Positions 18,610 to 21,750 of a stretch of DNA of 64,000 bases are shown in pieces. Source of the DNA: Clavibacter sp. VKM Ac-2872. Lineage in GTDB: Bacteria; Actinomycetota; Actinomycetes; Actinomycetales; Microbacteriaceae. The stretch spans positions 806,001 through 870,000 of the forward strand of contig NZ_JADKRR010000001.1 of the NCBI RefSeq assembly GCF_015351105.1. The letters are read 5' to 3'. The translations under genes and the position numbers were made by a program. The notes below the pieces were generated by a model, which did no database searches, was not told the DNA's origin, and was given only the letters and a program-made list of their open reading frames with translations. Numbering within the stretch: position 1 is the first letter of the stretch; each line of letters begins with the position of its first letter.

Positions 18610-18785
18610 CGAGCGGAGGCGGCGACGAGGGGCGCCGCCGGAGCGGCTCCGATGCGCATGACCTGGCCCATGTGCGCAGGCATCGAAGGAGACGGCAGCA
18701 GGCCGGGATCATCGCCGTCGGTGACGATGATGCCGTCGACGGAGACAGAGGCTCCCGGATGCAGTACCAGGGGAGTCGCGTCCAC
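18540..18785 (-). other. Short antisense ORF, possible gene fragment
   Basis: A GTG-initiated frame of 81 residues. The first 45 residues look protein-like (HPGASVSVDGIIVTDGDDPG, then MPAHMGQVMRIG), while the rest is antisense to the 3' end of the kinase gene and is low-complexity. It may be the remnant of a gene truncated where the islet joins the EPS locus. I recognise no family. Confidence 0.2.
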
Positions 18786-18788
18786 GCG

Positions 18789-18944
18789 TCAGCGGCGGGC
18801 GAGGCGTGCGTCGCCGAGCATCAATGTGAGCGCCTCATCCGGCGCGGCGACGCGGAGGTCGTCGTGTCCGACCATCAGCATCCAGATCTTCTTGGCCGGG
18901 CACTGGATCTCTGCGTGAGGCGGCTGTGACGTGTGGGGTCTCAC
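18789..18944 (-). CDS. Possible small protein of 51 residues, unknown
   Basis: A GTG-initiated frame ending just before the ORF at 18785. It contains a cysteine and a hydrophobic stretch (CPAKKIWMLMVGHDDL, then DEALTLMLGDARL) with composition more like protein than noise. There is no clear ribosome-binding site. The hairpin immediately before its start (GCGCCGGC/GCCGGCG) could be an unrelated terminator. It may be a real small gene or the tail of a decayed one. Confidence 0.25.
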   Translation of the reverse strand: MRPHTSQPPHAEIQCPAKKIWMLMVGHDDLRVAAPDEALTLMLGDARLARR

Positions 18945-19188
18945 GCCGGCGAGCCGGCGCTGTCAGCCTCTCGCCTGATGGCCGGTGAGAGGGAAAGAGG
19001 GCGTGCAGTCGACCAGGTGACTGCACGTCCTCTTCCCGGGCTGTCCCGCTGCGTCGAAGATCGACGCGTTCGGCGTCACGCCGGCTGAAGCCGCCGATCC
19101 GACGCGAACTCCTCGATGTCACGCAATCGAGCGACGAGCGAATACGAGTCTCGTCATTCGATGAGCTGGGATGATCGGGAGCGGCTTG
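18945..19188. other. Intergenic sequence in the islet
   Basis: No gene is supported. On the - strand, 19085-19160 reads as a short protein-like tail (LVARLRDIEEFASDRRLQPA then stop) directly after an in-frame stop, possibly a relic. The sequence looks less GC-rich than the EPS genes on its left. Confidence 0.35.
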
Positions 19189-19656
19189 TCATCCCGGGAT
19201 CCCATATGTCTGCCACATGATGTTGTGGTCGTGCACGCCGGCCGGCAAGTTGTAGCAGGCCCCGTACGACTGCTCCTCCCAGTCTGGGTAGCCCGTTTCG
19301 GTGATGATGCGAACCCGGGCGTTGCTGAGGTAGATCGATTGGGCGTTGTCGCGGATCTTCTGGCCGTTGCCTGCGGAGCCCCACGTCGTCTTGTTGAAGG
19401 TGTCGTTGACCCACCCCTCGCGGGCGTTCTCGCCTGTGTAGACGCGTGAGGCGCTTCCGCCGGAACTGCAATTGACTCCATAGAATATCTCGAACGCGGG
19501 TGTCGGTTGTGCGGCCTGGGCGGCGGTGGCTCCCGTCAACGTGGACAGTGCCACGCCCGCTGCTACCGACACTGCGGCGATTGTGCGTGATCGCCTCCGA
19601 TCGCGCCGGCCGGAGATGCTCGCGGTTGTGGTGCGCGGCTGGGGTGATTGATCCAT
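19189..19656 (-). CDS. Small secreted protein, possible beta/gamma-crystallin-like fold (copy 1)
   Basis: 155 residues. Start ATG 19656 is preferred over 19683 because AGGAGAAGG lies 6-8 bases before it and because the paralog at 20503 starts at the matching residue. A signal peptide (basic RRDRRRSR, then an Ala/Val core ending AAQAAQ) precedes a mature domain of about 105 residues with two cysteines and the phrases ASRVYTGEN, GWVNDTFNKT, IRDNAQSIYLSNARVRI and EEQSYGACYNLPAGV. The IYLSN/CYNLP pattern recalls small secreted Greek-key proteins such as the I36 peptidase-inhibitor group, but this is only a resemblance. Exported; possibly host- or competitor-facing. Confidence 0.75.
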   Translation of the reverse strand: MDQSPQPRTTTASISGRRDRRRSRTIAAVSVAAGVALSTLTGATAAQAAQPTPAFEIFYGVNCSSGGSASRVYTGENAREGWVNDTFNKTTWGSAGNGQKIRDNAQSIYLSNARVRIITETGYPDWEEQSYGACYNLPAGVHDHNIMWQTYGIPG

Positions 19657-19782
19657 GGTGTGTCCTTCTCCTCGTATCTTCATATGACCGGGCCCGTGCG
19701 GCCCGATGTGCGGCGGTGCCGGTGCACTCGACTTCGAGCACTGGCGGGCGCTGCCTCAGCCGCGGCTGCGTGGTGAGCCGGT

Positions 19783-19990
19783 GCAACTGAACGTCGACCA
19801 TCCCGTGTCGTCATGGGGGACGGCGTGCGGCACGTTGGAGCTGGCGCCCCGTGATCGCTGTTCCCGTCTGGGGCCATGGGGGATCGCCATCCGCGTGGAT
19901 CCGCTTGAGGGCGTTGCCGACGTCGATCGATTCGGCGTTGTCGCGGACCTCTTGACCGTCGCCCTGGTTGCCCCGGGTGGTCGTGTCGGC
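19783..19990 (-). pseudogene. Decayed third copy of the small secreted protein
   Basis: One - strand frame gives GNQGDGQEVRDNAESIDVGNALKRI-type sequence, matching NGQKIRDNAQSIYLSNARVRI of the intact copies. At about 19863 the match jumps to another frame: EQRSRGASSNVPHAVPHDDTGW against EEQSRGQCYNLPDGVSNHNTQW. The signal peptide and the first half are absent. This is a frameshifted, N-terminally deleted paralog lying between the two intact genes. Confidence 0.8.
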
Positions 19991-20032
19991 CGCATGCGGT
20001 CTTGCGCCGCATGGGGCCGGGAAGGAGCGGAC

Positions 20033-20503
20033 TCAGACCGGCAAGGAATAGTTGTAGGTCGCCCACTGCGTATTGTGGTTGCTGACTCCGTCCGGCAGGT
20101 TGTAGCACTGCCCGCGTGACTGCTCTTCCCAGGCGAGGCTGCGGTCGCCGTTGATGTAGATCCTCACGTGAGCGTTGCTCAGGTAGATGGATTCGGCGTT
20201 GTTGCGGACTCTCTGGTTGACGCCCCAGGAGCCCCATTGGGTTTTATTGAAGGTGTCGTTGACCCATCCCTCTCCCAGGTTCTCACCCGTGTAGACGCGC
20301 GATGCGGAACCGCCACCGCTGCAGTCCTTCCCGAAGAATATCTCGAACGCCGGGTCCGCTGCCTGTGCCGCGGTGGTTCCCGTGACGGTCGAGAGAACCA
20401 GACCTGCGGTGACGGAAATAGCGGCAATCGCTCGTGAACGCTTCGGCGTTCGCTTCCTGGCGTTTCTCGTGGGTGTGATCGTCCTTTGCGCTGATCGATC
20501 CAT
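20033..20503 (-). CDS. Small secreted protein, possible beta/gamma-crystallin-like fold (copy 2)
   Basis: 156 residues. ATG 20503 is chosen over 20536 since GAGGGG precedes it and the N-terminus aligns with copy 1 (MDRSAQ against MDQSPQ). A basic KRTPKRSR stretch and a hydrophobic core ending AAQAADP form the signal peptide. The mature part matches copy 1 over its whole length, including both cysteines (GKDCSGGG, RGQCYNLP) and GWVNDTFNKTQWGS. The two genes plus the broken copy point to local duplication. Function unknown; secretion is well supported. Confidence 0.75.
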   Translation of the reverse strand: MDRSAQRTITPTRNARKRTPKRSRAIAAISVTAGLVLSTVTGTTAAQAADPAFEIFFGKDCSGGGSASRVYTGENLGEGWVNDTFNKTQWGSWGVNQRVRNNAESIYLSNAHVRIYINGDRSLAWEEQSRGQCYNLPDGVSNHNTQWATYNYSLPV

Positions 20504-21254
20504 GGCGTTAGTGTCCCCTCGCGTCTTCGCACCCACTCGTTGCAGGCTCGTGATACCTGCGAAGCGGCATGATTGGTCTACCTAGAACTCGGACGATAGC
20601 AGGAGCGTTGAGGTTCTCTGTCCTTTGTTTGAGGTGTAGACAACATGAGAAGGTCCGTGTTACACATACTTCGTATGCCCGCCAGCGATCGGGGCTGGCA
20701 GGCTGCAACGCGCGGCGCTGTAGCGAGCCTTCGCGTCGAATGGAGAGCCCCTCGGCTCAGAAAGAGCGACGCACGAGCCTTCCTGGAACATGATCATCGT
20801 CATCAGTGCAGCGGACAGGACCTGACCAGCAGCCGTCCGTCACCGATCCTGCGCGCGCCTCTGGGCATGGAAGAACGACATCTGACCGTGCGTCACGTGT
20901 CTGCGTGGGAGTCTCCGCTCTGGAACTATTGCCGGACCATCTGCTCGAGACGCACCGCTGCGGCCTGATGTCGTGGTGGTCCGGATTCGGAGCAGCGAGA
21001 AGGGCAGCCGCAGGTCGAGGCTCCCCGGCATCCAGCTGCCCCCGTGTGAGCGGAGCCGCTAGCGGCGGTCGCCTACGCGATCATCCGCCGCGAGCGGGAG
21101 TCGGGCCAGACCACGACGTTCGTCTGGGAAGACCTCGTCGAGTGACGGGTGAGGTCGAACGCCGGTCAAGCTGATCGAGCAGAGTTCTGGTGGTCGGCGA
21201 CGGATCGGTCGTCGAGCCATCGAGAACCAGACGAGATCCGACAGCCGAAGCGCA
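20504..21254. other. Long region without a supported gene
   Basis: About 750 bases. It must hold the promoter of the - strand gene at 20503; no convincing hexamers were found. Short frames here lack ribosome sites and protein-like composition, except for the tail at 21059-21145. The sequence is less GC-rich than flanking genes and fits a degraded or acquired segment. Confidence 0.4.
21059..21145 (+). pseudogene. Possible C-terminal gene remnant
   Basis: A frame beginning just after an in-frame stop encodes a 28-residue protein-like tail (AVAYAIIRRERESGQ, then FVWEDLVE) and then TGA. It has no start codon or ribosome site and reads like the end of a truncated gene. Family not recognised. Confidence 0.2.
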
Positions 21255-21734
21255 CTATGGGAGCTGTGGGGGCGCGATCAGCTCGAGGAATCCACCGAGG
21301 GCACCTTCGAGGTAGATGATGCGTGTGCCGGCTCGGGCGCCACCGGTCATCCGGTGAGGTGTCCCGACCGGTCTCCAGCCGTGTCCAGCGCAGAGCTCGA
21401 GCACACGATCGAGGTCGGAGACCGTGAGCGCGATGTGCACCACTCCGACCTGTGCGGGCGAGCCGGCGGACTCAGGCAGCCGGGGCGGGTCGTACTGCAG
21501 CAGCTCCACCCGGTGGGGGCCGAGCGTCACCGTCGCTGCGCGGATCACGGCTCCACGGACGCCGGTGGTCGCCGCCGTGACCTCCACGTCGAGCGTGAAG
21601 GTGCGCTCGAGCACGAACCCCAGACCGGAGCACCACAGCGCCAACGCGTCGTCGAGGTCGGCCACGGTGAGACCGGAGTGGGCGATGTCGGAGACGAGCG
21701 GTGATGCCATGGCATCAGTATCGAGCTCCGACAC
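21255..21734 (-). CDS. VOC (glyoxalase/dioxygenase superfamily) protein
   Basis: 159 residues; ATG 21710 with an upstream GGAG is an equally plausible start. Two beta-alpha-beta-beta-beta halves are visible: SDIAHSGLTVADLDDALALWCSGLGF..RTFTLD, and VVHIALTVSDLDRVLELCAGHGW..GTRIIYLEGALGGFLELIAPP. Metal-ligand candidates are the His in IAHSG, the His in VVHIA and the Glu in FLELI. The family covers lactoylglutathione lyases, epimerases and ring-cleaving dioxygenases; the substrate is not deducible. It marks the return to ordinary high-GC sequence. Confidence 0.8.
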   Translation of the reverse strand: MSELDTDAMASPLVSDIAHSGLTVADLDDALALWCSGLGFVLERTFTLDVEVTAATTGVRGAVIRAATVTLGPHRVELLQYDPPRLPESAGSPAQVGVVHIALTVSDLDRVLELCAGHGWRPVGTPHRMTGGARAGTRIIYLEGALGGFLELIAPPQLP

Positions 21735-21750
21735 GCCGCAGCGTCGCGCT

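What the first reader, a model, noticed from the sequence alone, without database searches (positions are those of the whole stretch)
19189..20503. Cluster of small secreted Cys-containing proteins with a decaying middle copy
Two intact paralogs with signal peptides flank a frameshifted relic. The segment seems lower in GC than the EPS genes around it. Rapid gain and loss of small exported proteins is typical of effectors, inhibitors or toxins in contact with a host or competitors. The crystallin/I36-like pattern hints at a protease-inhibitor or binding role.
Basis: partly seen in the sequence, partly recalled or inferred. Interest (0 to 1): 0.7.

Follow-up and report, generated by a model that had tools for sequence, protein, structure and literature searches.

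The report
Mobile secreted crystallin-fold proteins in Clavibacter
A plant-associated bacterium carries several copies, two of them broken, of a small protein that looks exported and is predicted to fold like eye-lens crystallins, sitting in stretches of inserted DNA; it seems to be a patchily spread family of secreted binding proteins whose target is unknown.

Summary
Two intact genes (A 20033-20503, B 19189-19656, minus strand; 63% identical) with export-type leaders flank a relic (about 19777-19987) that lacks its 5' part and is frameshifted. They lie in a ~2.55 kb low-GC insert; 15 of 15 comparable Clavibacter relatives lack it there (10 by junction, 5 by genome-wide search). The genome holds five intact and two broken copies at three sites, all insert-like; one insert is bounded by a 23-bp repeat of a tRNA-Leu 3' end. 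B+relic is a diverged duplicate of a block elsewhere. Mature dN/dS is below 1 in 28 of 28 pairs. Six of 18 Clavibacter genomes have the family.

The mature domain is predicted (pLDDT 90.7) as a microbial betagamma-crystallin. It is distantly related to Streptomyces proteins, 3 of 9 scanned passing Pfam's 'Peptidase inhibitor I36' cut-off. Membership fails: 0 of 12 proteins match PF03995, and 14 of 14 share a two-cysteine pattern absent in 12 Streptomyces rows.

An effector or inhibitor role is possible but unshown; trypsin-type protease counts and neighbours give it no support.

The parts
20033..20503 (-). Copy A: intact gene, 156 aa, export-type leader (AxA ends at 48) plus ~108 aa betagamma-crystallin-like domain with Cys61 and Cys133
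19189..19656 (-). Copy B: intact gene, 155 aa, same layout; nearest relative found is copy C on contig C6 (78% aa identity)
19777..19987 (-). Relic copy: pieces of the second half of the domain in two frames; the part coding the leader and first half was not found
18904..19988 (.). Block B + relic + 3' flank, 74.5% identical over 1102 columns to an inverted block on contig C6 (77049-75969), which also holds a broken copy beside an intact one
18992..19037 (-). Hairpin ~150 nt 3' of copy B (19-nt arms, 89% complementary, -32.4 kcal/mol, z -5.4), without a T run: possible transcription terminator of the minus-strand genes; the matching stretch of the C6 duplicate shows no unusual folding (z 0.15)
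18654..21201 (.). Lineage-specific insert of about 2.55 kb (GC 0.642); its ends are set by relative G005, where the flanks lie 45 bp apart. In nine other relatives the missing stretch also takes in the glyoxalase gene (to ~21740)

Best explanation
A and B are intact members of an accessory family of small exported proteins. Borne out by computation: each gene codes an export-type leader and one domain predicted as a betagamma-crystallin of two Greek-key halves; in Clavibacter the family sits in short stretches best read as insertions at different chromosomal places, duplicates and decays, while intact copies keep dN/dS below 1. Inferred: the leader is cut after AxA, a Cys61-Cys133 disulfide forms outside the cell, and the domain offers loops that bind an extracellular macromolecule of a plant host or a competitor. 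The most likely action, in my judgement, is blocking such a target, with an extracellular protease first, as its distant Streptomyces relatives are labelled. Several diverged copies per genome would then cover several targets. I put the fold, leader and mobile-accessory part at about 0.9 and the protease-blocking step at about 0.35.
For: Fold: mature-domain model with 26 aligned sequences, mean pLDDT 90.7, pTM 0.84; 18 of the first 22 Foldseek rows in PDB are betagamma-crystallins, the best of them with probability 0.90-1.00 and TM 0.50-0.66. Kinship: profile-profile with 11 Streptomycetaceae proteins, probability 97.9, P 3.6e-13; 40 of 40 column shuffles and the reversed profile give 1.7 or less; 3 of 9 Streptomyces proteins scanned pass Pfam's I36 cut-off. 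Insertion: window site without the family in 15 of 15 comparable relatives (10 by junction; 5 by genome search); C6a site empty in 17 of 17; C6b insert bounded by a 23-bp copy of a tRNA-Leu 3' end. Constraint: mature dN/dS 0.10-0.66 in 28 of 28 pairs of 8 sequences. Leaders in 12 of 12 examined.
Against: No Pfam, PADLOC or PDB sequence match of note to A or B; one NCBIfam match to B far below its cut-off (16.4 against 170 bits). No Foldseek row has E below 0.001; the best is 0.07. The solved I36 inhibitor SMPI (recalled) is not among the 50 rows shown. The I36 proteins with the best Pfam scores do not align with ours (hhalign 0.1), and four other I36 groupings gave 0.5-3.6. No recurring neighbour was seen between different sites. 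The three genomes with most trypsin-type matches (10 each) have 0, 1 and 1 copies. Many dS values exceed 1, so those dN/dS ratios are rough. No expression or secretion data.
Confidence: 0.5

Rival explanations
1. Antagonistic protein: the exported crystallin-fold domain harms fungi or bacteria on the plant surface by binding cell-wall polymers, as recalled for small crystallin-fold antifungal and killer-toxin-like proteins of Streptomyces.
For: Same general fold. In Streptomycetaceae relatives the homologous domain is joined to a CHAP domain (Pfam-verified for L097; five more of the 20 loci translated show the same second part; L096 was cut off in the print). Patchy, multi-copy, insert-borne distribution fits competition.
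Against: No recurring partner gene was seen (neighbours not scanned systematically). The family's Cys pattern is its own. No activity data. The named antifungal proteins were not compared by any search.
Confidence: 0.25
2. Calcium-dependent structural or stress protein of the cell surface, in the manner of Myxococcus protein S (described in passages of PMC10574481).
For: First calcium-type motif partly kept: N/D-N/D-A-x-S in 9 of 14 family rows, against the motif N/D-N/D-#-I-S/T-S (passages of PMC6504099).
Against: Position 4 is never Ile and position 6 never Ser in 14 of 14; in the second motif position 5 is Ser in 12 of 12 Streptomyces rows but in 0 of 14 family rows. Patchy distribution and decay are unusual for a structural protein.
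Confidence: 0.12
3. Accessory part of exopolysaccharide production, since a Wzz/ATPase gene lies beside the window copies.
For: Adjacency in the window only.
Against: That site lacks the family in 15 of 15 relatives and holds other ORFs in some; the copies on C6 and in other species sit among other genes (by eye).
Confidence: 0.04
4. Selfish or neutral passenger genes of small inserts, on their way to decay with no benefit to this host.
For: Two of seven copies are broken; low GC and GC3 0.71-0.80 in the five intact own copies; insert-borne.
Against: dN/dS below 1 in 28 of 28 pairs, including own pairs B-C (0.53) and D-E (0.45) in the mature part (no significance test run); five intact copies.
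Confidence: 0.15

Closest known systems
Pfam PF03995 Inhibitor_I36 (Streptomyces branch represented by L057, L097, L099)
   Same: Small leader-bearing proteins or domains; aligned stretch around GxGQxIRNNAAS..VxIY and a terminal RNxN; profile-profile probability 97.9
   Different: 0 of 12 family proteins match PF03995 at E up to 1; the N-terminal C-x5-C pair seen in 9 of 12 Streptomyces rows is absent in 14 of 14; own Cys61/Cys133 pair; no Ser at position 5 of the second motif
Microbial betagamma-crystallins (nitrollin 3enu, clostrillin-type 3i9h, 1hdf (spherulin, name recalled), protein S 1nps)
   Same: Predicted two-Greek-key fold, Foldseek probability 0.90-1.00 for these rows
   Different: 9-15% identity; calcium motif incomplete in the first half and lost in the second
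SMPI, Streptomyces metalloproteinase inhibitor (type member of I36; recalled)
   Same: Small exported crystallin-fold protein, recalled
   Different: Not found by sequence from our profiles nor in the 50 structural rows shown; its inhibitory loop could not be compared
Small crystallin-fold antifungal or killer-toxin-like proteins of Streptomyces (AFP1, SKLP; recalled)
   Same: Fold class and size, recalled
   Different: Not compared by any search here

Membership tests
Peptidase inhibitor family I36 (PF03995) | Score above Pfam's gathering cut-off of 21.1 bits | tested here: not met
   0 of 12 members of A2 match PF03995 even at E 1 (L088 and L089 also without a match at E 0.1); 0 matches in the own genome
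Peptidase inhibitor family I36 (PF03995) | Homology to proteins that pass the cut-off | tested here: met
   hhalign A6 vs A7 probability 97.9, P 3.6e-13; shuffles 1.7 or less. A7 includes L057, L097, L099, above cut-off. Against other I36 groups no relation is seen
Peptidase inhibitor family I36 (PF03995) | N-terminal C-x5-C pair (my reading of the rows, not a curated criterion) | tested here: not met
   Present in 9 of 12 Streptomyces rows, absent in 14 of 14 family rows
Peptidase inhibitor family I36 (PF03995) | Inhibits a protease | not testable with these tools
   Needs an enzyme assay
betagamma-crystallin superfamily | Two Greek-key motifs packed as one domain | tested here: met
   Confident model and Foldseek ranking, 18 of the first 22 rows; a prediction, with E-values of 0.07 and up
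betagamma-crystallin superfamily | Calcium motif N/D-N/D-#-I-S/T-S in both halves (calcium-binding members) | tested here: not met
   First half partial in 9 of 14, second half without the Ser in 14 of 14 (motif from passages of PMC6504099)
tRNA-integrated genomic island (C6b copies D and E) | Insert bounded by a direct repeat of a tRNA 3' end, absent at that tRNA in relatives | tested here: met
   23-bp repeat at C6:313463-313485 and 317382-317404; tRNA-Leu at 317381-317458. Of 17 relatives, in 7 the flanks meet with a 22-24 bp overlap, in 6 a flank from further out meets the tRNA, in 4 no left flank was reached
tRNA-integrated genomic island (C6b copies D and E) | Carries its own integrase | tested here: inconclusive
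   The one other long ORF scanned (L085:9253-10146) has no Pfam match; the other ORFs listed were not scanned

The most novel reading that the evidence does not exclude
An undescribed family of apoplastic or surface-acting secreted proteins in Clavibacter, built on a crystallin fold with a private disulfide, that spreads as small islands (one at a tRNA gene), multiplies into diverged paralogs, and acts as a set of inhibitors or antagonists with different targets.
Probability: 0.25. Interest if true: 0.62.

Novelty: new variant of a known kind. Interest (0 to 1): 0.43.

Why it matters
Known Clavibacter secreted virulence factors are, as I recall, mostly enzymes; the listing (titles and starts of abstracts) shows Pat-1, a putative serine protease, and the effector gene chpG. 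A non-enzymatic, multi-copy, insert-borne family with no fitting Pfam or NCBIfam model would be a new class of candidates for contact with host or competitor. It also extends the bacterial betagamma-crystallin/I36-like group and gives a sequence bridge that can be tested at the bench.

Tried and rejected
Single-protein searches of plasmids and phages found nothing; a single-protein scan of genome contigs found nothing and the alignment scan gave two named relatives. PDB by sequence gave no crystallin or inhibitor, only rows I take as chance (one search gave no row at all). The G014 match in the genus search (E 3.2e-4, residues 6-63) covers the leader of an unrelated longer protein, so 7 of 18 became 6 of 18. 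In the family search 9 of 398 genomes matched; I keep G000, G012, G016, G239 and G315; G255 is an unrelated long protein; G098, G402 and G157 are weak and were not read. That search scored at most 9 candidates per genome in the rows shown, so members may be missed. In the class search 5 of 394 matched; besides the own genome only G505 was read, not G456, G662 or G685. Of 39 of 249 Streptomycetaceae genomes with a match, 20 loci were translated, 8 of those scanned with Pfam (2 above the I36 cut-off, 2 below it, 4 without an I36 match) and 10 used in A7 together with L057. Of 30 I36 loci, 17 were used: the pair L056/L057 gave 92.6, the four other groupings 0.5-3.6. Protease-partner idea: trypsin-type matches (own 5, genus range 3-10; matches, not genes) do not follow copy number. 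Direct repeats at the window insert: none of 10 bp or more between the stretches compared. The first structure model, with leaders, was poor (mean pLDDT 59.6). In one search the GC3 printed for the kinase gene was in a wrong frame and is not used; dN/dS used 8 of 12 sequences. Paper searches: nothing on this family among the titles and abstract starts listed (10 of 140, 15 of 45; searches found no paper). Passages were seen in PMC6504099, PMC10574481 and PMC5217389; the rest as listings only.

Full report
What is there. On the minus strand of window 19189-20503 lie two intact genes, A (20033-20503) and B (19189-19656), 63% identical at protein level, with a relic between them. The relic is recognised by the family profile at 19880-19987 (E 2.5e-5) and by two tblastn pieces in different frames; its 5' part was not found. 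Purine-rich runs precede both start codons (read). A strong hairpin without a T run lies about 150 nt beyond B and may end transcription.

Genome and relatives. The window is G000:C1:806001-870000 of a 3.51 Mb genome. One search gives seven matches in the own genome: A, B, C (C6:76299-76766), D and E (C6:314114-315709), and two pieces of one broken copy (C6:75716-76179). One search adds the window relic. That makes five intact and two broken copies. In the genus, 6 of 18 genomes have matches I accept, the other five with one each (after removing one). In genus g55 of the same family 4 of 28 have one. In 398 genomes of the family I accept 5 of 9 reported.

Insertion. At the window site, 16 of 18 genomes have the close Wzz/ATPase gene. 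In 10 of 15 relatives the right flank is found within the fetched stretch, 35 to 530 bp after the left flank; in G005, which also has the glyoxalase gene, the gap is 45 bp. In the other five (G003, G011, G012, G013, G015) the right flank is not reached and the tails show other ORFs; G003 and G011 have no family match at all, and the single matches of G012, G013 and G015 lie elsewhere. At C6a the flanks are 9 to 89 bp apart in 17 of 17 relatives, so about 2.15 kb is inserted. At C6b the tRNA-side flank is found in 17 of 17. In 7 of these the left flank meets it with a 22-24 bp overlap; in 6 a flank from further out meets it; in 4 no left flank was reached. The own genome carries a 23-bp sequence at both ends of the insert, one inside a tRNA-Leu gene. 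That is the mark of a tRNA-integrated islet of about 3.9 kb. Loss in every relative instead of gain in one is less economical but not excluded.

Duplication and decay. Window 18904-19988 (B, relic, 3' flank) aligns over 1102 columns at 74.5% with C6 77049-75969, which has the same order of broken and intact copy. The frame breaks seen in the two broken copies lie at different places, so at least part of the decay is independent. The tree joins B with C (99/94) and D with E (93/81), leaves A unresolved, and leaves 7 of 14 inner branches open.

Selection and composition. Mature-part dN/dS is 0.10-0.66 in 28 of 28 pairs of eight of the twelve sequences; many dS values exceed 1 and no test of significance was run. 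The five own intact copies have GC 0.60-0.64 and GC3 0.71-0.80; two flanking genes have GC3 0.96 and the glyoxalase gene 0.82. The insert is among the lowest-GC stretches of the window (7 of 1230 overlapping windows). The family genes of two g55 genomes also have GC 0.62, while those of G013 and G016 have 0.70, so low GC is partly a trait of the family.

Export. In 12 of 12 proteins examined a charged start, a hydrophobic stretch and an AxA site precede the conserved domain. This is a feature count, not a trained predictor.

Fold and kin. The leader-containing model was poor, but its first 11 Foldseek rows were betagamma-crystallins. The mature-only model with 26 rows has pLDDT 90.7 and pTM 0.84; 18 of its first 22 rows are betagamma-crystallins, and three of the other four are GH29 fucosidases. 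E-values are weak, 0.07 and up, so the statement rests on the ranking, the probability column and TM-scores of 0.50-0.66 for the best rows. By sequence, the family profile found one I36 protein in the class search (Pfam 30.4 bits) and matches in 39 of 249 Streptomycetaceae genomes. Profile-profile comparison of 14 family rows with 11 of those proteins gives probability 97.9; 40 shuffles and a reversal give at most 1.7. The A7 rows were chosen from search hits, so some selection is built in. Against the I36 group with the best Pfam scores the result is 0.1, and that group itself aligns only partly with A7 (51.8).

What sets the family apart. 14 of 14 Microbacteriaceae rows have exactly two Cys, at the same alignment columns; none of 12 Streptomyces rows has that pair. 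The first calcium-type motif is partly kept in 9 of 14. In the second, the Ser of the Streptomyces rows (12 of 12) is absent in 14 of 14, most reading NxNxxW (12 of 14). Pfam and NCBIfam have no model that fits.

Function. No step of function is shown. The inhibitor reading rests on distant kinship to a family named for an inhibitor; the antagonist reading rests on fold and on CHAP fusions in Streptomycetaceae relatives (L097 verified; five more visible). Protease counts give no support to a partner role. Apart from G013 and G016, whose copies sit at the same place, no neighbour recurs between the loci looked at; neighbours were judged by eye from predicted ORFs, not scanned.

Noticed in passing
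window 18610-21750: The site downstream of the Wzz/ATPase gene holds different content in different Clavibacter species (almost nothing, glyoxalase-like or other ORFs by eye): an insertion-prone spot.
   Followed up: partly
L085:6464-10405 (own contig C6:313463-317404): About 3.9 kb islet at a tRNA-Leu(TAA) gene with a 23-bp direct repeat, carrying copies D and E and a 297-aa ORF (L085:9253-10146) without Pfam, PADLOC or PHROGs match.
   Followed up: partly
L097 (also L098, L100, L104, L106, L109): Streptomycetaceae proteins join the related I36-like domain to a CHAP domain (Pfam-verified for L097 only); the domain there may aim a cell-wall enzyme and not inhibit a protease.
   Followed up: partly
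window 21255-21734: Glyoxalase-superfamily gene at the edge of the insert, within the stretch shared with G005 but missing at this site in the nine other relatives whose right flank was reached.
   Followed up: no
window 18992-19037: Very stable hairpin 3' of copy B, not conserved in the duplicated block on C6.
   Followed up: no
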